From Burkholderia stagnalis (GTDB taxonomy: Bacteria > Pseudomonadota > Gammaproteobacteria > Burkholderiales > Burkholderiaceae): a DNA stretch of 64,000 nt. Numbering within the stretch: the first letter of the stretch is position 1; every line of letters starts with the position of its first letter. The position numbers and the translations under genes were made by a program. This document shows positions 25,632-35,920 of this stretch, in pieces. The notes below the pieces were generated by a model. That model was not told the DNA's origin and did no database searches. It saw nothing but the letters and a program-made list of their open reading frames with translations. The stretch covers positions 62,001 through 126,000 of the forward strand of contig NZ_CADESW010000009.1 of assembly GCF_902830275.1 (NCBI RefSeq), read 5' to 3'.

Positions 25632-27938
25632 TCACATCCCCCGTCGCCGCGCGGCAATCCTTTGCAGCACGCTGAACGCGCCGAGCGCGAGCAGCAGACC
25701 GGCGACGACGCCCACCGCGCCGAGCACGACAGGATGCCGCGCCGCCACCGTCCAGAGCCGCGCGTACCACGGCACGAAGCCGACCACGTACGGGTCGCCC
25801 ACGCGCATGCTGTCGACCGACCCCGGCCGCACCAGCGCGAGGTCGCCTTGCAGCTGCGACACGAGCCCCGCGTTCTCGAACACGTCGAGCACGCTGCCGA
25901 GGCGCGCCGGGTCGGTCGCGCTCAGCGCGACGACGCTGCGGCCGCGGCTGCCCGGCAGCTCGAAGCCGAGCAGCGCCGCGAGCGAGCCGGTCTGTTCGAT
26001 GCGCGCGCTGCCTTCGGCCATGCCGACGCCGTTGCGCCAGCGCTCCTTCACCGTGAACGCGACCCGCGTGCCGCCCGCGCCGCCCTGCTCGCCGAACGAC
26101 AGCGGCAGCGCGTCGCGCCAGTGCCCGAGCAGCGGCAGCGACGGCGCGCCGTCGATCACGAGCAGATCCTTGTTGCCCGCCAGCGCGGCAACCTCGCCCG
26201 GCCGCACGACCTGCACGCGCAGCGCCGGGAAGCCGGTCCACTGCCCCATGTGGCCGAGCATCGTGAGGTAAGCCTCGAGCTCCTGCGGCGACGGCCGCCC
26301 GGCGACCACGACCGCGGTCTGCGACAAGTCCGCGAAGCGCGTGAACGGGAAGCCGCTGTTCGCGAAGTACGCGAGGTTCGGCAACTGCGCGTAGTGGACG
26401 AAGTGCGAGAAGTCGATCGTCGAATCGGGGTCGATCGCCGCGCGCTGCGGCTCGGTCGCGGTGCTCGAGCACAGGCCCGTCTTCTGCGAATCGAGCGTGA
26501 AGCGGAACTGCAGCTGGTTGCCGCTGCCGACGCGGAACGCCGGGATGTCGACGTCGCTCGTCACGCGCCCTTCCGGCACCGACAGCAGCGGCAGCTGCAT
26601 GCGCCCGCGCGCGTCCTCGGCGTGGGACGGCCCGAGCCGGTACGACTTCACGAGCTGATCGTTGATCTCGACCGCGAGCGTCGAATTGTCCTGCACGGTC
26701 GGCGCCGTGTAGCGGTAGCGCAGCGTGATCGGCACGCCCGAGCCGTTCCACGAATGCAGGTCGGCCGGCACCCGCAGGTTCAGCCGGATCGCGTCCGGCG
26801 AGGTGCCGCGCACCTCGAGCTCGCGCGGGTCGCCGACCAGTTCGCGGAACGCGATCGGCCGGTCGACCGGCAGCCAGCGCGGCGCGTCGTACGGCTTGCG
26901 CGGCGCGCCGAGGTCGACGCGCGCGACCGTCGCCGACGGCCCCGACAGCGCCGCGCGGCCGAGCACCAGCGCCGCGACCGCGTCGTCGACTTCGGCCGCC
27001 GAGCGGCCGGTGACGACCAGCACCTTGCGCTCGGGCGCGGCCGGGTTGTCGGCGACCGCCAGCGTCGGGCCGGTGACGGACGGCAGCGCGAGGCCCGGCG
27101 GCAGCGCCGTGACGGGGCCGATCAGCACCGCGTTGTCGTTGGCCGGCAGCGCGGATGACACCGGGAAGCGCGCGTGGCGATAATCCGCGAGCGCGCCGAA
27201 CCACGACGCGAGCACGCCCGCGCTCCTGAGCGTCGCCGTGTCGGGCGACGCGGGCAGCACGAACGGCAGGCGCAGCAGCCCGTTGTCGCGGCGATCGAAG
27301 AACGGCGCGGGCAGCAGCGCGAGATCGTTCGGCAGCCGCACCGGCGACTCGTCGAGGATCAGCTCGCTGGTCGGGCTCACGTCCGCCCACAGCGCCGAAT
27401 TCATCGGGTCTTCGCAGTGGTCGAGCGTGTAGTGCGCGATCAGGCGCAGGCCGATCTGGTTGAAATCGGAGAAATAGCGGGGATCGATCGGGATGTCCTG
27501 CGTGACCATCTTGCCCGCGCGCGGCGCGTCGAACGGCACGGTCGCGACCACCTCGCCGTTCACCGACACCTTCAGGTGCGACATCGGGAACACCAGCGAC
27601 GGCGAATACGCGTAGGTCAGGCGCAGCCGCGCGCCGGTCACCACGCGGTCGAGCCGCACGCCGGCGTGAATGGTGCGCGCGTCGTCCGCGCCGCGCAGGC
27701 GCAGCGGGTCGAACGCGCCGAGCGTCGCGAACGGCAGGCGCACGCTGGTCGCGCCCCGGCCGGCGGACGGCGGCGCGCTCGCGGCATCCGCGGGCGCGGC
27801 GGAGAGCGCCGAAGCCGGGGTCGGAACCATGGCCGGCGCCGGGCCGGGCGGCGTCTGCGTGGCAGCCGGCAGGCAGGCGGCATAGAACGTGCCGGCCGCG
27901 GCCGCGATCGAGACGAGAAACGACGCGGCCGGCTTCAT
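25632..27938 (-). CDS. bcsB: Cellulose synthase subunit BcsB
   Basis: 768 residues, typical for BcsB. A signal peptide covers residues 1-28, and an Ala/Pro linker runs to about 65. The periplasmic beta-jelly-roll and flavodoxin-like domains follow, with the family blocks AGKMVTQDIPIDPRYFSDFNQIG and HCEDPMNSALWADVS. A single C-terminal helix (VVLGAVGVVAGLLLALGAFSVL) anchors it beside BcsA. GGAG lies six bases before the ATG at 27938; the 68 codons of open frame upstream are arginine-rich and not counted. It is the first gene of the operon, so the promoter should lie between here and the divergent GGDEF gene. Confidence 0.95.
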   Translation of the reverse strand: MKPAASFLVSIAAAAGTFYAACLPAATQTPPGPAPAMVPTPASALSAAPADAASAPPSAGRGATSVRLPFATLGAFDPLRLRGADDARTIHAGVRLDRVVTGARLRLTYAYSPSLVFPMSHLKVSVNGEVVATVPFDAPRAGKMVTQDIPIDPRYFSDFNQIGLRLIAHYTLDHCEDPMNSALWADVSPTSELILDESPVRLPNDLALLPAPFFDRRDNGLLRLPFVLPASPDTATLRSAGVLASWFGALADYRHARFPVSSALPANDNAVLIGPVTALPPGLALPSVTGPTLAVADNPAAPERKVLVVTGRSAAEVDDAVAALVLGRAALSGPSATVARVDLGAPRKPYDAPRWLPVDRPIAFRELVGDPRELEVRGTSPDAIRLNLRVPADLHSWNGSGVPITLRYRYTAPTVQDNSTLAVEINDQLVKSYRLGPSHAEDARGRMQLPLLSVPEGRVTSDVDIPAFRVGSGNQLQFRFTLDSQKTGLCSSTATEPQRAAIDPDSTIDFSHFVHYAQLPNLAYFANSGFPFTRFADLSQTAVVVAGRPSPQELEAYLTMLGHMGQWTGFPALRVQVVRPGEVAALAGNKDLLVIDGAPSLPLLGHWRDALPLSFGEQGGAGGTRVAFTVKERWRNGVGMAEGSARIEQTGSLAALLGFELPGSRGRSVVALSATDPARLGSVLDVFENAGLVSQLQGDLALVRPGSVDSMRVGDPYVVGFVPWYARLWTVAARHPVVLGAVGVVAGLLLALGAFSVLQRIAARRRGM

Positions 27939-28448
27939 CGGCCGCTCCGTTTCATCTGATGGTCGACGGTGTCGAAGGCGACGCATGCCGCGCCGCCGGG
28001 CAGGCGAATGCACATCCCCAATGCTTCCCCTCTCGTATACAGGTCTGATTGCCTTGAGAAACAGCGCGAACGGTTGAAAGCGGCGCCCTCGCGCCGCCGC
28101 GCCGCGCGCCTGGCACCGGCGCGCGCACTCCCCTTTCGTCACACTATCTCAAAAATAGATTAAAACGTACCCCAATTCGAACGTACAAGGCGGAAAGGCC
28201 ATGAATCCGGTCAGAAATGCCGGCGCAGCGCGCTGGGGGTACGAATTGCGCCGTTGTCACCGGATTGGTCGACCGGCACAATGCCGGGCGCATGCATCCT
28301 GTCGGCGCCATCCCGGCGCGCCGATCCGACAAACGGATGTCGGCGGCGATCCCGTTGCAGGCCGCCGGCCGCGCGCGTCCGCGTGAGCGGCGCGTATGCT
28401 ACCGCATTCTGCCGTGCTTGGCCGCGCTTTCTTTGTGGAAAACCTGAA
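27939..28448. promoter_or_regulatory. Divergent control region between bcsB and the diguanylate cyclase gene
   Basis: About 510 bases without a convincing gene. The centre (28141-28190) is AT-rich against its surroundings. ACGTAC occurs at 28165-28170 and again at 28181-28186. CGTACCCCAATT (28166-28177) has an inverted partner, GGGGTACGAATT (28236-28247). These are plausible regulator sites, but no named consensus was recognised. The bcs promoter and probably the cyclase promoter should be here. Confidence 0.5.
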
Positions 28449-29477
28449 TTGAATCAATCCGTCGCCATTGCCACGCCCGCCCCGGAAACCCTGCTGCGCA
28501 TCATCGCCGCGCAAACCGAGATCGCGAAGCTCGGGCTCGATCTCGGCAGCGTGATGGCCTACGTGGCCGAACAGGTGCCGTGCCTGACCGGCGCGGCCGG
28601 CGCGGCGGTCGAGCTCGCCGAAGGCGACGACATGGTGTACCGCGCCGCGTCGGGCACCGCCGCCGGGATGCTCGGGCTGCGGCTGCGGCGCTCGGGCAGC
28701 CTGTCGGGCCGGTGCGTGACGCAGGGCGAGCTGCTGCGCTGCACCGATTCGGAAACCGACCCGCGCGTCGATCGCGACGCCTGCCGCCGGGTCGGGCTGC
28801 GCTCGATGCTCGTGATGCCGCTCACCCACCTCGATACGACGGTCGGCGTGCTGAAGGTGATGTCGCCCGCCGTCGACGGGTTCACGCCGGCCGATGCCGG
28901 CACGCTGCGGCTGATGGCCGAGCTGATCGCGGCCGCGATGTTCCACGCGGCGCGCAACGAGGCGAACGAGCTGTACCTGCGCGCGACGCACGACGCGCTC
29001 ACCGGCCTGCCCAACCGCGCGCTGTTCTACGACCGCCTGCGCCAGTCGATGCACGCGGCGCTGCGCGGCCATGCCCGGCTCGGCATTCTGAACATCGACA
29101 TGGACGGCCTGAAGCCGATCAACGACGTGCACGGCCATCGCGCGGGCGACGCCGCGCTGCGCGAGGCCGCGACGCGGATGATGGGCGCCGTGCGGCGCTC
29201 GGACACGGTCGCGCGGCTCGGCGGCGACGAGTTCGGCGTGATCCTGCCGAACATCCGCACCCGCGCCGACGCGCAAACGCAAAGCGAACGGCTCGCGCAG
29301 ACGGTCGGCGCGCCGTTCGAGTTCGAGGGGCGGCCGCTCGCGCTCGGCGTAAGCGTCGGGATCGCGATGCTGCCCGACGACGGCACCGAGATGAACGCGC
29401 TGATCGAACACGCGGACCAGGCGATGTACGAGGTCAAGCGGTCGCGGCGCAGCGCGCGCGAGGACGTGACTGCGTAA
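28449..29477 (+). CDS. GAF-GGDEF diguanylate cyclase
   Basis: 342 residues if read from TTG at 28449; the frame continues upstream but that part is not protein-like, so the start is uncertain. A GAF sensor domain covers about residues 25-165 (CLTGAAGAAVELAEGDD, LVMPLTHLDTTVGVLKV). The catalytic domain follows with HDALTGLPNRALFYDRL, then GGDEF intact at 258-262. R249-x-x-D252 sits five residues before GGDEF, the classic inhibitory I-site. The enzyme should make c-di-GMP from two GTP with product feedback. It is soluble (no membrane segments) and divergent from bcs, whose BcsA and BcsE bind c-di-GMP, so local control of cellulose is a reasonable inference. Confidence 0.9.
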   Translation: MNQSVAIATPAPETLLRIIAAQTEIAKLGLDLGSVMAYVAEQVPCLTGAAGAAVELAEGDDMVYRAASGTAAGMLGLRLRRSGSLSGRCVTQGELLRCTDSETDPRVDRDACRRVGLRSMLVMPLTHLDTTVGVLKVMSPAVDGFTPADAGTLRLMAELIAAAMFHAARNEANELYLRATHDALTGLPNRALFYDRLRQSMHAALRGHARLGILNIDMDGLKPINDVHGHRAGDAALREAATRMMGAVRRSDTVARLGGDEFGVILPNIRTRADAQTQSERLAQTVGAPFEFEGRPLALGVSVGIAMLPDDGTEMNALIEHADQAMYEVKRSRRSAREDVTA

Positions 29478-29480
29478 CTG

Positions 29481-29576
29481 CGTGACGGTGTGACGGTGTG
29501 ACGGTGTGACGGTGTGACGGCGTGACAGCGTGACGGCGTGACGGCGTGACGGCGTGACGGCGTGACGGCGTGACGG
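29481..29576. repeat. Tandem repeat, 12 units of 8 bp (YGTGACGG)
   Basis: Twelve contiguous octamers. The first is CGTGACGG, the next four are TGTGACGG, the sixth is CGTGACAG, and the last six are CGTGACGG. The array begins four bases after the stop of the GGDEF gene and ends before the convergent stop at 29614, so it is intergenic. Neighbouring units are nearly identical, which suggests slippage or recent expansion. Confidence 0.97.
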
Positions 29577-29613
29577 CGTCGAGGGTACGACACCCGTTGC
29601 CGCCGGCCGCTCT

Positions 29614-30069
29614 TCAGAACCCCGACATCGCGATCGCGGCCCCGACGATCGCCCACTGGATCACCGCGATCAGCACCCCGGCCCGGCACAGGCCGATCGC
29701 GCCGCGCACGCGCGCATCGAGCGCCCGGCCCGCCTTCGCGGCATCGATCCAGCCGAGGTCGGCCAGCGCGCGGTCGAGCGCCGCGAGCGCATCGCCGGCG
29801 CCGTCCGGCGCCGTTGCCGTGGCCGCATGCGCGAGCGCCGCAAACAGCCGGCGGTCGATCGCGATACGCACCGCATACCACAGCGCCGCGACACCCGACG
29901 CGGTGCTGACGGCCGCGAGCAGCGCCCGCGCGAGTGGCGCGGCCATCCAGCCCGCTGCGACCCACCACCCCGCGCCCGCCGCCGCGAACGCGGCCACGAT
30001 CGCCCACGCGCCCGCATCGAGCGCGCCACGGGCCGCGGCAATCCGGTACGGCGCAGACGGGTCGCGCAT
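29614..30069 (-). CDS. Uncharacterised 151-residue membrane protein at the end of the lipid cluster
   Basis: 151 residues. Hydrophobic segments occur at about 20-42 (AWAIVAAFAAAGAGWWVAAGW), 45-68 (ARALLAAVSTASGVAALWYAV) and 128-150 (GVLIAVIQWAIVGAAIAM), with a soluble stretch of about 55 residues between the second and third (LADLGWIDAAKAGRALDARVRGAIGLCRAG). No family recognised. It starts inside the stop codon of the PAP2-phosphatase gene (TGATG), so the two are translationally coupled and probably act together. This argues for a role in the same lipid pathway, perhaps as a partner of the phosphatase. It has no counterpart that I recall in the E. coli ynb cluster. Confidence 0.75.
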   Translation of the reverse strand: MRDPSAPYRIAAARGALDAGAWAIVAAFAAAGAGWWVAAGWMAAPLARALLAAVSTASGVAALWYAVRIAIDRRLFAALAHAATATAPDGAGDALAALDRALADLGWIDAAKAGRALDARVRGAIGLCRAGVLIAVIQWAIVGAAIAMSGF

Positions 30070-31475
30070 CACGCGTCCCCCGCCGCGCGGCGGTCGATCC
30101 AGTGCTGCAGCACCGCGACGCCTTCGTCCGACCACACCGCGCGCGGCCGGGCCGCCCGCACCGCCGCGAGCGCGTCGCGCGCATCGGTCAGCCCGCGCCG
30201 CAGCGCCAGCCACGCGGCCGCGCACAGCACGCTGCGGCCGTAGCCGAGCGCGCAGCAGACCAGCACGTCGCGGCCCTCGCCGTGCAGGCGCTCGAGCGCC
30301 GCGACGGCCTGCTGCAACTGCAGCGCGGTCGGCGCGACGAGGTCGAGCTGCGGCACGCTCACATACGCGAGCGATGCATCGGCCGCGGCCCAGCGCGGCA
30401 TCTCGGCGGTCAGGTCGACGAGCCCGGTGAACCCGTGCTTCCGGAGTTCGCGGGCGCTCGGCGCGCGGCCGATCGACACGCGTTCGTCGATGCGCGCGGG
30501 CGCCGGGTTGCGGAACGTCCATGCGCGCGAATTGACGAACGCGCCGGCGATCGTCGGCGCGAACAGCAGCCGCATGAACGGCGCAAACCGGCCGTCGGCG
30601 CGCTTCTGGAATGCGGACGGCGCGCCGCGCCGGTAGATCCATGCGACGCACGCCAGCGCCAGCGCGCCCCACCCCGCCGCCAGCGCCCAGCCAGCCGCAT
30701 GCGGAATGCATGCGAGCGCGACGAGCGCCGCGATGCCGGCGCCGAGCGCATAGCGGCGCGCGAGCGCGCGGCCGGCCACGGACGGCGCCGCATCGGCGCC
30801 CGGCAGCCGGCCCGCCGCGTCGCGCAACGGGAACAGGAACAACGCGAGACAGCCGACCGCCGCGCCGGTCGGCACGTCGATCACGTGATGCTGATAGGTC
30901 GTCAGCACCGACACGCCGATCGTCGCGAACCACACATGCAGCACCGCGCGCGCCAGCGTGCCGCGCAGGTGCTTCGCGTAGACGGCCCACAGCACGACGA
31001 GCAGCCCGATATGCAGCGACGGCGCCTGGTTGAACGGCTTGTCGAAACCCATCAGCAGCGTGAACAGCGCGCCTGCCACGCCGCCCGCGTCGGGCCGCTC
31101 GAAGCCGAAGCGCAGCGGCCACGCGACGAAGCACGCGACCGAGATCAGCTGCACGGTCAGCAGGCGCTTCACGTGATCGAGCAGATCGTCGCGACGGGCC
31201 CAGAACAGGAACGACAGCGCATACAGCAGGTCGATCGACCAGTACGGCACGATCGTCCACGGCACGAACGGAATCGCATGCTCCCAGCCGAACGCGAAGG
31301 TCGGCACCGCGTCGCGGCGCGCGGCGAGCCAGTTCGCGAAGCCATAGGTCGAGAAGAACACCGCGCCCATCGCCGCGAGCCAGCCGACGCGCAGCGCGAG
31401 CGACGCGTCGCGCGCGCCGGCCGCGGCCGGGGCCTGGGCGGCCAGGCCGCGCGCGCGGCCGCCGAGCTCGCCCAT
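30069..31475 (-). CDS. PAP2-like membrane domain fused to dual-specificity phosphatase (YnbD-like)
   Basis: 468 residues. Residues 30-280 hold about eight membrane helices with a PAP2/sphingomyelin-synthase-like active site: PSLH at 152-155 and HHVID at 196-200. The form PSLH plus HHxxD is closer to IPC/sphingomyelin synthases than to classical PAP2 (SGH/SRxxxxxH). The C-terminal 150 residues are a tyrosine/dual-specificity phosphatase with C408-ALGYG-R414, the CX5R loop, and D354 as a candidate general acid. The layout is that of E. coli YnbD (430 residues, function unproven). It should act on a lipid headgroup at the membrane. Its start overlaps the hydrolase-methyltransferase stop (TGATG). 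Confidence 0.85.
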   Translation of the reverse strand: MGELGGRARGLAAQAPAAAGARDASLALRVGWLAAMGAVFFSTYGFANWLAARRDAVPTFAFGWEHAIPFVPWTIVPYWSIDLLYALSFLFWARRDDLLDHVKRLLTVQLISVACFVAWPLRFGFERPDAGGVAGALFTLLMGFDKPFNQAPSLHIGLLVVLWAVYAKHLRGTLARAVLHVWFATIGVSVLTTYQHHVIDVPTGAAVGCLALFLFPLRDAAGRLPGADAAPSVAGRALARRYALGAGIAALVALACIPHAAGWALAAGWGALALACVAWIYRRGAPSAFQKRADGRFAPFMRLLFAPTIAGAFVNSRAWTFRNPAPARIDERVSIGRAPSARELRKHGFTGLVDLTAEMPRWAAADASLAYVSVPQLDLVAPTALQLQQAVAALERLHGEGRDVLVCCALGYGRSVLCAAAWLALRRGLTDARDALAAVRAARPRAVWSDEGVAVLQHWIDRRAAGDA

Positions 31476-33241
31476 CACGCGTCGACCCGCTGCGCGAGGC
31501 TCACCGTGAAGATCCCCATCGCGTCGATCCGCTGGTCGAGCTTGCGGAACCCCGCGCGCGCGACGAGTTCGTCCATCTCGGCCTGCGAACGGCGGCGCAT
31601 CACCCAGGTCGCGTCGCCGCGATGGTTGTTCAGCGCGCGCGCGATGAATTCGAGCTGCGGATGCCACGGCTGCCCCGTATAGACGAGATAGCCGCCCGGC
31701 GGCACCGCCTGCGCGAGCCCGCGCAGCGAGCGCTCGATCAGCGCGTTCTCGCCGAACAGCTCGTACAGGCCCGACACGATCGCGAGCGTCGGCTGCGGCG
31801 CGAGCGCCGCCAGCGACGCGTCGTCGAACGCGTCGCCGCGCTCGAAGCGCGCGATCGCTTCGAGGCCGCGCTGCGCGATCAGCGCGCGCCCCGCCTCGAC
31901 GTTCGGCGGGCTGTAGTCGCGCAGCGTGATGTCGTCGGGCGCGGCGCCGTCGCGCTCGGCCGCCGACGCGATCGCGTCGAGCACATAGCGGCCGTGCCCG
32001 GCCGCGATGTCGACGATCCGCACCGGCTCGCTGGCGCCGCGCAGCCGCGCGATCGCCGCGCCGATCAGTTCCTGCAGATGAATCTTGCGCTGGCGGATGC
32101 CGGCCCAGCCCGGCGAATCGAGGTAGGTGCGGTCGATCAGCCGGCCGATGCCGAGCCGGCCTTGCGCATCGTTGCGATACACGTAGTCGAGCGTCGAGCC
32201 CGAATCGAAGCCGAGCTTCAGGCCGAGCGCGATGCCGTCCGACAGCGCGCCGCCCGCCTTCAGCCCCGCGCGCGTGATCGCCCAGTACGCGCGTGCGAGC
32301 GGATTCGCGGGCGGCCGCGCGAGCGCCGCGTATTCGTCATGGAACGCGCCGCGCCGGTCGGCGTCGGCGAGCGACACGCGTGGGCTCGGCGTGTCGAATT
32401 CGCGCAGCACGAACGCGCGCAGCGGCGCGAGCGCCTGCGCGCGGTCGCGCTCGCCGAGCGTGTCGTGATAGAAGCCCGGCAGCACGATGCGCTCCTTGCG
32501 CGCCGAGCCGAGCCGCTCGTAGAAGCGGTCCTGCGGGCCGCGATGGACCACCCAGTCCGCGCCGGAAATCAGCAGTTGCGTCGGCACGGTGATCGCCGCC
32601 GCGTCCGCGACGATCCGCTGCGCGGTGTCGTGCAGGTCGAGCAGCATGTTGACCGCGATCGGCCGCGTGATCAGCGGATCGGCCGCGTAGCTCGCGATGC
32701 GCTCGGGGTCGTGCGTGAGGAATTTAGGCTTCACGTAGCTGTTCACGTAGAACAGCCCGCGCAGCTTGTGCATCAGCCGCAGGCCGGGCCGCGCGAACGG
32801 CACGTAGAGCTTGATGTGGAACGCCGGCGACGCGACCGCCAGGCAGCGGATCGGCGGCGCGTAGTCGTGCGCCCAGGTTGCCGCGAGCACCGCGCCGACG
32901 CTCTGGCCGACGACGGCCATGTCCTCGATCGCGATGCCATGCGTGTCGCGGATGTGCTCGACGAAGGTCTGCAGGTCGCGCACCGACGCGGCCGCGCTCG
33001 GGCTGTAGCCGCGCGCGCCGGGCGAGCGGCCGTGGCCGCGCGCGTCCCACGCGAAGAACGCGAACTCGGGCAGGTCGAGCTCGTCGACGAGGTGCGCGAC
33101 GCGCGCCGAATGCTCGTGGCCGCGATGCAGCAGCACGATCGCGCCGCGGCAGCGCTCGCCCGTCGCGGGCCAGTGACGGTAGAACAGCGGTTCGCCGTCG
33201 TGCGTGGTGAATTCCGCCTCGCGGGCGATGCGTGTGCTCAT
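31475..33241 (-). CDS. Alpha/beta-hydrolase fused to class I SAM methyltransferase (YnbC-like)
   Basis: 588 residues; E. coli YnbC is 585. Residues 1-285 form a monoglyceride-lipase-like alpha/beta-hydrolase: AWDARGHGRSPGARGYS, then nucleophile S114 in GQSVG (112-116), with D229 (SGADWVV) and H259 (GFYHDTLGE) completing the likely triad. Residues 340-588 are a Rossmann methyltransferase with IVDIAAGHGRY at 409-419 and NNHRGDATWVMRRRSQAEMDELVARAGF near the end. One polypeptide could thus cleave an acyl ester and methylate a product. Both activities are inferred from motifs only. GAGAGAGAG precedes the ATG. It lies between the CDP-alcohol transferase and the PAP2-phosphatase. Confidence 0.87.
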   Translation of the reverse strand: MSTRIAREAEFTTHDGEPLFYRHWPATGERCRGAIVLLHRGHEHSARVAHLVDELDLPEFAFFAWDARGHGRSPGARGYSPSAAASVRDLQTFVEHIRDTHGIAIEDMAVVGQSVGAVLAATWAHDYAPPIRCLAVASPAFHIKLYVPFARPGLRLMHKLRGLFYVNSYVKPKFLTHDPERIASYAADPLITRPIAVNMLLDLHDTAQRIVADAAAITVPTQLLISGADWVVHRGPQDRFYERLGSARKERIVLPGFYHDTLGERDRAQALAPLRAFVLREFDTPSPRVSLADADRRGAFHDEYAALARPPANPLARAYWAITRAGLKAGGALSDGIALGLKLGFDSGSTLDYVYRNDAQGRLGIGRLIDRTYLDSPGWAGIRQRKIHLQELIGAAIARLRGASEPVRIVDIAAGHGRYVLDAIASAAERDGAAPDDITLRDYSPPNVEAGRALIAQRGLEAIARFERGDAFDDASLAALAPQPTLAIVSGLYELFGENALIERSLRGLAQAVPPGGYLVYTGQPWHPQLEFIARALNNHRGDATWVMRRRSQAEMDELVARAGFRKLDQRIDAMGIFTVSLAQRVDA

Positions 33242-33276
33242 GCGCTCTCTCTCGGTTCGTTATTCGAAGCAACAAC

Positions 33277-33299
33277 GCGACGCCGCCCTCCGGCGTCGC
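33277..33299 (-). promoter_or_regulatory. Intra-operon hairpin between CDP-alcohol transferase and hydrolase-methyltransferase genes
   Basis: GCGACGCCG (33277-33285) pairs with CGGCGTCGC (33291-33299) over a five-base loop. On the minus strand it lies just after the first gene stop and is followed by GTTGTTGC, not a true U run. It may be a weak terminator or an mRNA-stability hairpin that sets different levels of the two genes. Confidence 0.4.
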
Positions 33300-33303
33300 C
33301 CGC

Positions 33304-33909
33304 TCAACCGCCCGCTTCGGCGATGCCGGCCCGCACGCGCCGCACGACGGTCACGGCCGACAGCACGATCAGCAGCCGCCACAGCCATGCGGCGAGGCCG
33401 CCGGCCGGCAGGCCGACGCCGATCCACAGCGCGAACGCGCCGAGTGCGAACGCGCGGTCGCTCTTGCCGAACGGGCCGTCGTAGCGGCGGCTCGCGCCGA
33501 CGAGCGGGCCGATCAGGCCTGCGCATTCGACGATCACCGCCAGCAGCGCGAACAGCCACACGTCCGCCTGCGAGAACGCAGACACCGCGAGGAACGGCAG
33601 CACCAGCGCGACGTCCGACACGACGTCGCCGAGCTCGTTCAGGTACGCGCCGAGCGTGCTCTTCTGGCCGTGCTCGCGCGCGAGCATGCCGTCGATCGCG
33701 TTGAGCGCCATGCGCACGAACAGCCATACGGGGATCAGCAGGAACAGCGCCGGCGCGAACGCGCCGAGCCCGGCCAGCGCGCCGACGACGATCGAGCCGC
33801 CGGCCGCGAACAGCGTGACCTGGTTCGCGGTGACGCCGCGTTCGACGAGGGAATTCGCGAGCGGTCGCAGGCGGTTCTGGAATTTGGGTTTGAGTGCGTA
33901 CAGGCTCAT
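33304..33909 (-). CDS. CDP-alcohol phosphotransferase family protein (YnbA-like)
   Basis: 201 residues from ATG at 33909; a GTG five codons upstream is possible, but MSLYALKPKFQ matches the expected family start. Six hydrophobic helices. The family signature D-x2-D-G-x2-AR-x8-G-x3-D-x3-D reads N70-A-I-D73-G-M-L-AR-...-G87-AYL-N91-ELG-D95. Two of the four acidic positions are therefore asparagine. Normal members join a CDP-linked lipid or alcohol to a hydroxyl acceptor with release of CMP. As the first gene of the minus-strand half of the module it presumably makes the lipid that the downstream enzymes modify. Substrates are unknown. Confidence 0.84.
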   Translation of the reverse strand: MSLYALKPKFQNRLRPLANSLVERGVTANQVTLFAAGGSIVVGALAGLGAFAPALFLLIPVWLFVRMALNAIDGMLAREHGQKSTLGAYLNELGDVVSDVALVLPFLAVSAFSQADVWLFALLAVIVECAGLIGPLVGASRRYDGPFGKSDRAFALGAFALWIGVGLPAGGLAAWLWRLLIVLSAVTVVRRVRAGIAEAGG

Positions 33910-34320
33910 CGTTTTAATTGGCACCGCTTGGGGTTCGTCTCCGCGGGCGGCCCCCGGTGCGGAAACGGTCGACTACTGGACGGGCATAATCGTCGCCGAG
34001 CAGCCCCCGGGCGTCAAGCGCGCGGCCGGCGCGGCGATCTGGCGTTTTTCCGGGAAACTCGCGATAATCCGCTGGCCCGAATGCAATGCAACATGGTTGC
34101 AAATCGTATTCGCGCACTCGTGCAATAGCGATCACTCCCGCCGGCAATCGTGCAACCCGCCGATTATCGCGGACCAGCGACAGGCACTCACTCATTTGAA
34201 AAAATTTAAACATGGGCCGTCCGATGCGCATCGCGCCGCATCGGCATTCCGGGATGCCGTCCGTCACGCGTGCGCCGCGCGGCGGGCGTGCGAACCGCAA
34301 CGACAGGAGGCGCGCCGCCG
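33910..34320. promoter_or_regulatory. Divergent intergenic region of the lipid cluster
   Basis: 411 bases with no convincing gene. Both halves of the lipid module are transcribed away from it. A short AT-rich tract at 34192-34212 (TTGAAAAAATTTAAAC) stands out against the GC-rich surroundings and could be promoter DNA. AGGAGG at 34305-34310 is the ribosome binding site of the acyltransferase gene. Confidence 0.5.
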
Positions 34321-34950
34321 ATGAACATCCTGCATGCATGGCAGCGCGACTTCCTGCTGACGATCGTGCGGCTCGTCGCCGGCGCCTATCCGGTCTGGCA
34401 CCAGGCGCCGCCGAGCCCGACGCAGAAGATCTACTTCTCGAACCATACGAGCCACATCGACACGCTCGCGATCCTCGCGGCGCTGCCGCGCGACGTGCGC
34501 GCGGTGGTGCGGCCGGTGGCCGCGCGCGACTACTGGGACAGCAGCGACATGAAGCGCCACATCGCGCAGAAGCTGCTGAACGTCGTGCTGATCGACCGCC
34601 ACCGCGAGACTGGCGGCGACCCGCTCGACCCCGTGCGCGACGCGCTCGCGCAGGGCCATTCGATCATCATCTTCCCCGAAGGCACGCGCAGCGCCGAGGC
34701 GCTGCCGCAACCGTTCAAGAGCGGGCTGTTCCATCTCGCGAGCGAATTCCCGAACGTCGCGCTCGCGCCCGTCTACCTGGAGAACCTGCAGCGGATCATG
34801 CCGAAAGGCGCGATCTGGCCGGTGCCGCTGATCTGCAAGGTGCACTTCGGCGCGAACGAGGCGCGCGGCGACCAGGAAGACAAGGCGTCGTTCCTCGCGC
34901 GCATGCGCGACGCGATCGTCGCGCTCGCGCCGCACCGGCCGGCAGGCTGA
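34321..34950 (+). CDS. PlsC-like lysophospholipid acyltransferase
   Basis: 209 residues from ATG at 34321, ten bases after AGGAGG. NHTSHIDTLAI (residues 41-51) contains the HX4D catalytic motif and FPEGTRSAEALPQPFKSGLFHLA the EGTR substrate-phosphate motif, both diagnostic for glycerolphosphate acyltransferases. PVYLENLQRIMPKG near the C-terminus is the block IV proline region. The enzyme should transfer an acyl chain to a lysophospholipid such as 1-acyl-glycerol-3-phosphate, giving phosphatidic acid, the substrate of the CdsA-like enzyme encoded 40 bases downstream. It is shorter than housekeeping PlsC (about 240-260) and has no obvious membrane helix. Confidence 0.88.
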   Translation: MNILHAWQRDFLLTIVRLVAGAYPVWHQAPPSPTQKIYFSNHTSHIDTLAILAALPRDVRAVVRPVAARDYWDSSDMKRHIAQKLLNVVLIDRHRETGGDPLDPVRDALAQGHSIIIFPEGTRSAEALPQPFKSGLFHLASEFPNVALAPVYLENLQRIMPKGAIWPVPLICKVHFGANEARGDQEDKASFLARMRDAIVALAPHRPAG

Positions 34951-34990
34951 GCGCGGCGCGCCCCCTCTTCATCCGGACAACCACATCCAC

Positions 34991-35920
34991 ATGCGAACAC
35001 TTTTCTGGGAACTGGTCGCGGGCGTCACCGCGCTGCTGAGCGTCGCGACCGTGATCGGCGCGATCCTCGGCGCGCGCAGCGGCGGCACGAGCGCGACGAT
35101 CGTCAACCTGAACCAGCGCATCCGTGCATGGTGGGCCATGATCGCGGTGATGGTGATCGCGATCGGCCTCGGCAACAACGTCACCTACCTCGTGTTCGCG
35201 GTGCTGTCGTATCTCACGCTGCGCGAATTCATCACGCTCACGCCGACCACCGCGAGCGATCACACGACGCTGTTCATCGCGTTCTTCGTCGCGATCCCGG
35301 TGCAGTACCTGCTGCTCGGGATCAACTGGTACGGCATGTATTCGATCTTCGTGCCGGTGCACCTGTTCTTCGCGATGTCGCTCGTGTCGGCGCTCACGCA
35401 GGACACGCGCGAATTCCTGAGCCGCAACGCGAAGATCAACTGGGCGCTGATGGTGTGCGTCTATGGGCTGAGCCATGCGCCCGCCGTGCTGATCCTCGAC
35501 ATTCCGCGTTACACCGGGCAGAACGCGCTGCTGCTGTTCTTCTTCCTCGTCGTCGTGCAGATCAGCGACGTGCTGCAGTACGTGGTCGGCAAGCTGTTCG
35601 GACGCCGCAAGATCGCGCCGCGCCTGTCGCCGTCGAAGACGATCGAGGGCTTCGTCGGCGGCGGCCTGCTCGCGACGCTGTGCGGCGCGTCGCTGTATCG
35701 CGTGACGCCGTTCAGCTTCGGCGCCGCGTTCGGCATCTCGCTCGCGATCGTGGTCGCCGGCTTCGTCGGCGGGCTCGTGCTGTCGGCCGTCAAGCGCTCG
35801 CTCGGCACCAAGGACTGGGGCTCGATGATCGCCGGCCACGGCGGGATGCTCGACCGCGTCGATTCGATCTGCTTCGCCGCGCCGGTGTTCTTCCACCTCG
35901 TCCGCTATCTGTACGTGTGA
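34991..35920 (+). CDS. CdsA-like phosphatidate cytidylyltransferase (YnbB-like)
   Basis: 309 residues with about eight membrane helices. The CDS signature is complete near the C-terminus: SAVKRSLGTKDWGSMIAG followed by HGGMLDRVDS. Upstream, ISDVLQYVVGKLFGRRKIAPRLSPSKTIEGFVGG is the other conserved block (SPKKT-type). It converts phosphatidic acid and CTP to CDP-diacylglycerol at the inner membrane. It is likely a second CdsA dedicated to this cluster, since the essential cdsA of Burkholderia normally sits with frr, uppS and dxr. It would feed CDP-diacylglycerol to the divergently encoded CDP-alcohol transferase. No good ribosome binding site is visible 5-12 bases upstream. Confidence 0.9.
   Translation: MRTLFWELVAGVTALLSVATVIGAILGARSGGTSATIVNLNQRIRAWWAMIAVMVIAIGLGNNVTYLVFAVLSYLTLREFITLTPTTASDHTTLFIAFFVAIPVQYLLLGINWYGMYSIFVPVHLFFAMSLVSALTQDTREFLSRNAKINWALMVCVYGLSHAPAVLILDIPRYTGQNALLLFFFLVVVQISDVLQYVVGKLFGRRKIAPRLSPSKTIEGFVGGGLLATLCGASLYRVTPFSFGAAFGISLAIVVAGFVGGLVLSAVKRSLGTKDWGSMIAGHGGMLDRVDSICFAAPVFFHLVRYLYV

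What the first reader, a model, noticed from the sequence alone, without database searches (positions are those of the whole stretch)
29614..35920. YnbABCD-like lipid module with added acyltransferase and membrane protein
Six genes in two divergent transcripts could form one pathway: PlsC-like acyltransferase (lyso-lipid to phosphatidic acid), CdsA-like enzyme (to CDP-diacylglycerol), CDP-alcohol transferase (headgroup addition), hydrolase-methyltransferase fusion (deacylation and/or methylation), PAP2-phosphatase fusion (headgroup or phosphate removal or exchange) and an orphan membrane protein. Four match E. coli ynbA-D in domain layout, whose product I do not know to be established. TGATG overlaps join the last three minus-strand genes. 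The set predicts a non-standard phospholipid or a methylated headgroup lipid.
Basis: partly seen in the sequence, partly recalled or inferred. Interest (0 to 1): 0.75.

Follow-up and report, generated by a model that had tools for sequence, protein, structure and literature searches.

The report
Six-gene uncharacterised bacterial lipid pathway
Six neighbouring genes, kept together in many distantly related bacteria and partly present in E. coli as ynbABCD, look like a self-contained line for making an undescribed membrane lipid, and the enzyme at its centre lacks two acidic residues that its relatives are said always to have.

Summary
The grouping is not local. All six lie together in 22 of 26 other module-bearing genomes of a phylum sample and in 49 of 80 named loci (Alpha-, Beta-, Gammaproteobacteria, one acidobacterial MAG), mostly in the order ynbA-ynbC-ynbD-orf6-plsC-ynbB. 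The 'orphan' membrane protein (orf6) is a regular member without a Pfam or PDB relative.

New finding: the CDP-alcohol phosphotransferase (YnbA) has a phosphatidylinositol-phosphate-synthase fold, but two of the four signature aspartates (D1, D3) are asparagine in 112 of 112 relatives. A second asparagine-type subfamily (21 of 21) also usually lies beside a YnbB-type CDP-DAG synthase and PlsC.

Best model: PlsC and YnbB make dedicated CDP-diacylglycerol; YnbA joins it to a phosphorylated alcohol; YnbD's cytosolic phosphatase removes the phosphate; YnbD's periplasmic PAP2-type domain and the YnbC lipase-methyltransferase finish the product. De novo inositol is unlikely as headgroup (inositol-phosphate synthase in 0 of 27 genomes). 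Every reaction is inferred; the product is unproven. New variant of a known kind.

The parts
29614..30069 (-). orf6: 151-aa membrane protein, about 3 predicted TM segments; conserved sixth member of the module
   Evidence: TGATG overlap with ynbD; similar ORF between ynbD and plsC; profile hit in 61 of 80 loci; no Pfam family for the window protein and only single-member stray hits among 24 (best E 0.019); no PDB match better than E 1.3; D72, F76, D99, R120 invariant in 24 sequences; hydropathy
30069..31475 (-). YnbD-like: 8-TM PAP2-type domain (catalytic-type H155, H197, D200) fused to a dual-specificity phosphatase (D378, C408-x5-R414)
   Evidence: invariant in 43 sequences; model, pLDDT 88; DSP part near Tk-PTP, PTPMT1 and other DSPs; topology: PAP2 site outside, DSP inside
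31475..33241 (-). YnbC-like: monoacylglycerol-lipase-type hydrolase (S114, D229, H259) fused to Methyltransf_20
   Evidence: invariant in 20; best PDB matches: monoacylglycerol lipases; MT part: weak CFA-synthase match
33304..33909 (-). YnbA-like CDP-alcohol phosphotransferase, NN type: N69..D72-G ... G86...N90-E91..D94...D98; R151, R190 kept (numbers as in alignment A2, which starts at codon 2)
34321..34950 (+). PlsC-type acyltransferase (HTSHID, PEG), preceded by an AGGAGG-like site
34991..35920 (+). YnbB-type CDP-diacylglycerol synthase with the CDS C-terminal signature SAVKRSLGTKDWGSMIAGHGGMLDRVD
   Evidence: a second CDS-family copy elsewhere in the genome

Best explanation
A dedicated phospholipid pathway. 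PlsC makes phosphatidic acid and YnbB turns it into a separate pool of CDP-diacylglycerol. YnbA, which has a phosphatidylinositol-phosphate-synthase fold but asparagines at D1 and D3, moves the phosphatidyl group to a phosphorylated alcohol (not made by inositol-phosphate synthase), giving phosphatidyl-X-phosphate. The cytosolic DSP domain of YnbD removes the terminal phosphate. YnbC, a monoacylglycerol-lipase-like hydrolase plus methyltransferase, trims or exchanges acyl chains and methylates the lipid. The PAP2-type domain of YnbD, facing the periplasm, releases or transfers the headgroup, with orf6 as a membrane partner. Shown here: gene content, conservation, folds of YnbA and of the DSP part, conserved catalytic-type residues, asparagine substitutions, predicted topology. 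Inferred: every reaction and their order. Not known: X and the methylated atom.
For: Six-gene set in 22 of 26 and 49 of 80 loci; plsC-ynbB adjacent on one strand in 84 of 84 loci holding both. No other gene family was found in more than 12 of 112 loci (rough caller). YnbA: best PDB matches by sequence and fold are PIP synthases. PMC4634129 (passages) names two arginines that bind the acceptor's phosphate; R190 aligns with the second in both profile alignments, R151 with the first but one column off; both are invariant in 55 of 55. YnbD DSP: DSPc in 43 of 43; structural neighbours include PTPMT1 with PI(5)P; 43 of 43 match PRK12361, the window protein at 105 bits against a cut-off of 505. Assuming the N-terminus inside, mean K+R is 10.4 in the predicted inner loops (85 residues) and 3.6 in the outer (62 residues), which puts DSP inside and the PAP2 site outside. 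Catalytic-type residues are conserved in YnbC and YnbD and present in PlsC and YnbB. YnbB over-production did not replace CdsA in E. coli (PMC6362211, its data not shown), as a dedicated supply would predict. The Bacteroides inositol-lipid cluster pairs a PIP synthase, a phosphatase, an AUR1-like enzyme and a membrane protein in the same way (PMC9246714 passages).
Against: No product or activity is known. Loss of two metal ligands could mean that YnbA is inactive or catalyses something else. Eight of 80 loci have only ynbA-plsC-ynbB and one more only ynbA-plsC, and their genomes gave no Methyltransf_20 match (0 of 9), so methylation is not obligatory. In PMC6362211 ynbB deletion alone changed neither growth nor MPIase; effects appeared when yeast Tam41p was expressed. 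YnbD did not complement PGP phosphatase loss (PMC7413402). In the Bacteroides cluster the membrane protein was dispensable for inositol lipids. The PAP2 half found no solved relative here, but DSP matches filled the list.
Confidence: 0.45

Rival explanations
1. Lipid turnover or repair module: YnbA is a non-catalytic CDP-DAG binder (pseudo-enzyme), while lipase, phosphatases, PlsC and YnbB recycle damaged or signalling lipids.
For: Two metal-ligand aspartates replaced; lipase and two phosphatase-type domains present; no gene for making a headgroup recurs beside the set.
Against: D2, D4, A and G2 of the motif are kept in 112 of 112 and N is fixed at both other sites; R151 and R190 are invariant in 55 of 55. 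A decayed enzyme would vary. PlsC and YnbB are building enzymes.
Confidence: 0.18
2. Pyrophosphate-linked glycolipid pathway of the MPIase kind: the nucleophile is the phosphate of a sugar-1-phosphate, so sugar-PP-DAG is formed; fewer carboxylates would suit an anionic nucleophile.
For: YnbB over-production raised MPIase in E. coli, whose precursor is GlcNAc-PP-DAG (PMC6362211 passages; review PMC7018664). ynbB was one of five genes with fewer transposon insertions in a strain making only ECA-PG (PMC8609368 passages). The electrostatic argument is my inference.
Against: ynbB deletion left MPIase unchanged. PMC8609368 states that ynbB is not needed for ECA-PG. No such glycan is known to me in most module-bearing groups.
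Confidence: 0.12
3. Inositol-lipid pathway: YnbA is a PIP synthase and X is inositol.
For: Closest curated families are archaetidylinositol- and phosphatidylinositol-phosphate synthases in 55 of 55, though far under their cut-offs (69.7 bits against 180 for the window protein).
Against: Inositol-phosphate synthase PF07994 matched in 0 of 27 module genomes; it rings in 5 of 14 controls, not in E. coli, which has Methyltransf_20. Two signature residues are missing. Uptake of inositol is not excluded.
Confidence: 0.07
4. A chance neighbourhood of unrelated lipid genes.
For: None found.
Against: Same gene order across classes and in an acidobacterial MAG, while flanks differ.
Confidence: 0.02

Closest known systems
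E. coli ynbABCD
   Same: Same four protein families; profiles built here hit all four (L064)
   Different: The E. coli record read has no plsC or orf6 beside them and the order is A-B-C-D. YnbB is partly characterised. No study of a ynbA or ynbC product was seen in the listings (40 of 157 papers shown; 4 of 4; 9 of 9); PMC7413402 says no function was ascribed to YnbD
Bacteroides thetaiotaomicron inositol-lipid cluster BT_1522-1526 (PMC9246714, passages read)
   Same: PIP-synthase enzyme, lipid-phosphate phosphatase, AUR1-like enzyme and a membrane protein in one cluster
   Different: No inositol-phosphate synthase here; the phosphatase is DSP-type, not PgpA-type; dedicated PlsC and CDS and a lipase-methyltransferase are added; the synthase lacks D1 and D3
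Actinobacterial PIP synthases (6h53, 6wm5, 5d92)
   Same: Fold (TM-score 0.67-0.77); R190 and probably R151 match the acceptor-phosphate arginines
   Different: All four signature aspartates there; N-D-N-D here
PTPMT1-type lipid phosphatases
   Different: Fused to an 8-TM PAP2-type domain predicted to face the other side of the membrane

Membership tests
CDP-alcohol phosphotransferases / PIP synthases | Eight signature residues D1xxD2GxxAR...GxxxD3xxxD4 ('absolutely conserved', PMC4634129, passages) | tested here: not met
   D1 and D3 are N in the window protein and in 112 of 112 relatives; R is K or N in 2 of 112. The four other family members found in this genome have all four D
CDP-alcohol phosphotransferases / PIP synthases | Six-TM CDP-AP fold | tested here: met
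   Model pLDDT 95.4; the 18 PDB chains with Foldseek E <= 0.001 are all PIP synthases or other CDP-APs
CDP-alcohol phosphotransferases / PIP synthases | Second arginine of the acceptor-phosphate pair (R195 in the Mycobacterium enzyme) | tested here: met
   R190, invariant in 55, aligned; by sequence alignment only
CDP-alcohol phosphotransferases / PIP synthases | First arginine of the acceptor-phosphate pair (R155) | tested here: inconclusive
   R151, invariant in 55; aligned with it, one column off
CDP-alcohol phosphotransferases / PIP synthases | Transfer from CDP-DAG to (phospho)inositol | not testable with these tools
   No assay; INO1 matched in 0 of 27 genomes
E. coli ynbABCD-type module | Homologues of YnbA, YnbB, YnbC, YnbD together | tested here: met
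E. coli ynbABCD-type module | Contiguous order A-B-C-D on one strand | tested here: not met
   Window: plsC-ynbB divergent from ynbA-C-D-orf6
CDP-DAG synthases (CTP_transf_1) | Family score and C-terminal signature (motif recalled) | tested here: met
   211 bits against 24; motif
Dual-specificity phosphatases (YnbD C-terminus) | DSPc profile and C-x5-R loop (motif recalled) | tested here: met
   45.3 bits against 33.5; C408, R414 invariant in 43
PAP2 / AUR1-type enzymes (YnbD N-terminus) | PAP2 profile over cut-off and fold | tested here: inconclusive
   PAP2_3 23.3 bits against 27 in the window protein; 32 of 43 match PAP2_3 and 34 of 43 PAP2 at E <= 0.01; fold list filled by the DSP domain
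MPIase biosynthesis | Makes GlcNAc-PP-DAG | not testable with these tools
   Only published E. coli data
Bacteroides-type inositol-lipid cluster | Inositol-phosphate synthase present | tested here: not met
   0 of 27 genomes

The most novel reading that the evidence does not exclude
YnbA and a sister subfamily form a separate catalytic class of CDP-alcohol phosphotransferases in which two metal-binding aspartates are fixed as asparagines. Each is coupled to its own PlsC and YnbB-type CDP-DAG synthase. The three-gene unit is an ancient machine for a lipid not yet described, present in E. coli in part; the ynb module is its elaborated form, with lipase-methyltransferase, double phosphatase and orf6.
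Probability: 0.35. Interest if true: 0.85.

Novelty: new variant of a known kind. Interest (0 to 1): 0.62.

Why it matters
If right, many Gram-negative bacteria, in part E. coli, hold a second, separate phospholipid line whose product has escaped notice, and YnbA would show that this enzyme superfamily can work with half of its signature carboxylates. The module gives the uncharacterised ynbA, ynbC and ynbD genes a shared, testable purpose and adds a membrane protein without any family found here.

Tried and rejected
Inositol as headgroup: unlikely as a de novo product (PF07994 in 0 of 27 genomes). Headgroup genes in the flanks: with a rough ORF caller no other gene family occurs in more than 12 of the 112 loci examined. 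One of the two 12-locus clusters is an AAA ATPase seen in Variovorax-, Xenophilus- and Shinella-type loci, the other looks like an antisense artefact. Flanks of reduced clusters showed nothing that I could tie to lipid headgroups. Moraxella L066 has a stand-alone methyltransferase beside patatin-like lipase and SDR genes: noted, not pursued. The PAP2 half of YnbD was not folded alone, so absence of a PAP2 match means nothing. The methyltransferase profile's best PDB match is a cyclopropane-fatty-acid synthase (E 2.3e-5): too generic to use.

Papers: listings (40 of 157 shown; 4 of 4; 2 of 2; 20 of 169; 0 found; 9 of 9; 10 of 132; 12 of 22); in these I saw no report of the asparagine substitutions or of the six-gene module. 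Passages were read of PMC6362211, PMC7413402, PMC7018664, PMC4634129, PMC6506517, PMC9491525, PMC8609368, PMC12871917, PMC12992598 and PMC9246714; of PMC12713373 the abstract and outline only. PMC9491525, PMC12992598 and PMC12713373 did not bear on the question.

Error corrected: one search translated ynbD in a wrong frame; its ynbD rows were discarded and redone with the right frame. Sampling limits: the 80 named loci were chosen by two YnbA patterns, one of which (NA[IL]DGMLA) includes the first asparagine; 21 of the 80 lack that pattern and still have N. They are the 80 best of 584, nearest to a Rhizobium query. The 26 phylum-sample loci were found through PF12147 and are free of that bias. 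The alignments A2-A5 hold parts of the 80 (54, 23, 42 and 19 loci) plus the window. The orf6 profile was built from the window and phylum-sample loci, so only its 61 of 80 in the named set is independent. The tree has only four canonical sequences.
Full report
What is there. The window (contig 9 of an 8.03-Mb genome) holds six genes at 29614-35920. On the minus strand, in reading order: YnbA-like CDP-alcohol phosphotransferase, YnbC-like hydrolase-methyltransferase, YnbD-like PAP2-phosphatase fusion and a small membrane protein (orf6); the last three are joined by two TGATG overlaps. On the plus strand, divergent: PlsC-type acyltransferase and a YnbB/CdsA-type cytidylyltransferase. The genus is probably Burkholderia: the best plasmid-collection hit of YnbA is 88% identical in B. 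ambifaria.

The set is conserved. A Methyltransf_20 search found it in 27 of 398 genomes of the phylum sample, in 12 of 212 genera, and in 49 of 65 genomes of the genus. I read the surroundings of all 26 other hits of the phylum sample. With one profile for each gene, all six lie together in 22 of 26. Of the 71 loci with all six, 53 have the order ynbA-ynbC-ynbD-orf6-plsC-ynbB on one strand, 15 the same with ynbA flipped, and 3 another pattern. Median span is 5.8-5.9 kb. Where plsC and ynbB were not near ynbA they can lie elsewhere: of five genomes searched for YnbB, five have a relative at 49-56% identity besides a weaker second copy, three of them away from ynbA. Flanking genes differ: no other family in more than 12 of 112 loci. 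Chance would put a CDS or PlsC-type gene in about 0.4-1% of such stretches.

Variants. An E. coli ynbABCD record lacks plsC and orf6; an E. coli plasmid has ynbA-ynbB-plsC-ynbC followed by a ynbD fragment; Pseudanabaena has ynbA-ynbB-plsC-methyltransferase without the hydrolase; Fusobacterium has ynbC-ynbA-ynbB; a Rhizobium plasmid has all six. Haemophilus, Avibacterium and others have ynbA-plsC-ynbB (Gallionellales L101, near a contig end: ynbA-plsC), and 0 of these 9 genomes gave a Methyltransf_20 match (completeness not told). So NN-type transferase, PlsC and YnbB look like the core; YnbC, YnbD and orf6 look like additions.

orf6 is not an orphan. A similar protein of about 150 aa stands between ynbD and plsC; the profile finds it in 61 of 80 independent loci. 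It has no Pfam or PDB relative found here. Hydropathy suggests two TM segments near the start and one at the end.

The central enzyme is odd. YnbA matches PIP synthases by profile (6h53, E 4.6e-10; 1.9e-11) and by fold (model pLDDT 95.4, TM-scores 0.67-0.77 to PIP synthases). The literature describes eight absolutely conserved residues including four aspartates, D1 to D3 binding metal and D4 as likely base (PMC4634129 and PMC6506517, passages). In YnbA, D1 and D3 are asparagine in 26 of 26 loci found without using YnbA, in 6 of 6 from plasmids and in 80 of 80 from the YnbA scan, while D2 and D4 are always aspartate. The residue after the second asparagine is E in 111 of 112 (K in the E. coli KE48 record) and the later D98 is kept in 112 of 112. 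The other four members of the family found in the same genome have all four aspartates. Of the two acceptor-phosphate arginines of PIP synthases, R190 matches the second in both alignments; R151 matches the first and is one column off; both are invariant in 55 of 55. This does not look like decay: it is a fixed alternative.

A second asparagine-type family. In Rhizobium-type genome G043 the plsC-ynbB pair lies beside another CDP-alcohol phosphotransferase, also with asparagines at D1 and D3. Searching 398 genomes with it gave 21 close relatives, its own genome included (E <= 1e-33). All 21 have both asparagines; within about 1.5 kb, 19 of 21 have a YnbB-type match (one partial, at a contig end; two on the other strand) and 15 of 21 a PlsC match, some cut by the stretch's end. 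A further copy, in G253, matched only at its two ends. On wider stretches of 20 of the 21, rough gene calls show no further family in more than 3 of 20. In a small tree the asparagine types separate from the four canonical sequences with support 0.997, too few outgroups to prove a single origin.

The other enzymes look active. YnbD keeps H155, H197, D200 of the PAP2 part and D378, C408, R414 of the phosphatase in all 43 sequences aligned. Its model (pLDDT 88) and charge distribution put the PAP2 site outside and the phosphatase inside. The phosphatase is closest to Tk-PTP, PTPMT1 and similar folds. YnbC keeps S114, D229 and H259 in 20 of 20 and resembles monoacylglycerol lipases. PlsC and YnbB of the window have their motifs. 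Catalytic roles of these residues are recalled from the families.

How it most likely works. PlsC and YnbB supply CDP-DAG; YnbA joins it to a phosphorylated alcohol; the DSP domain removes the phosphate; YnbC edits acyl chains and methylates; the PAP2 domain acts on the outer face. The closest worked example is the Bacteroides inositol-lipid cluster (PMC9246714, passages), but inositol-phosphate synthase was matched in 0 of 27 module genomes. Every reaction is inferred. Known facts that fit: E. coli YnbB makes CDP-DAG in vitro but does not replace CdsA. Known facts that do not help: ynbB deletion alone shows little, and YnbD failed to complement two phosphatase defects. One paper reports ynbA up-regulation and says that it is activated by BglJ-RcsB (PMC12871917, passages).

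Verdict. The pathway reading is well supported as a unit; the methylated or non-standard lipid is plausible but unproven. New variant of a known kind, with a credible chance that the asparagine-type transferases are a new catalytic class.

Noticed in passing
L171:5095-5895 (and L174-L194): Second CDP-alcohol phosphotransferase subfamily with asparagines at D1 and D3, in a transferase/PlsC/YnbB neighbourhood; relatives in 137 plasmid records, 103 of them Rhizobium.
   Followed up: partly
window 29465-29579: Tandem array of 14.4 copies of the 8-base unit CGTGACGG between the GGDEF gene and the end of orf6.
   Followed up: no
window 25632-27998 (-) and 28254-29477 (+): Neighbours are a cellulose synthase BcsB subunit and a GAF-GGDEF protein.
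   Followed up: no
L066 (Moraxella osloensis plasmid): Stand-alone Methyltransf_20-like protein beside patatin-like phospholipase, SDR, CDS and PAP2 genes: lipase type seems exchangeable.
   Followed up: no
L063 1314-4653 (E. coli plasmid): Aminotransferase, HAD hydrolase and Gfo/Idh/MocA genes upstream of a plasmid-borne ynb cluster, recalling kanosamine synthesis (recalled, not tested).
   Followed up: no
G253:C33:50914-51174: The second NN-type gene matches only at residues 1-60 and 182-209 of the query, so it looks internally deleted there.
   Followed up: no
G431: One genome of the genus carries two Methyltransf_20 copies, one with a clearly different score.
   Followed up: no
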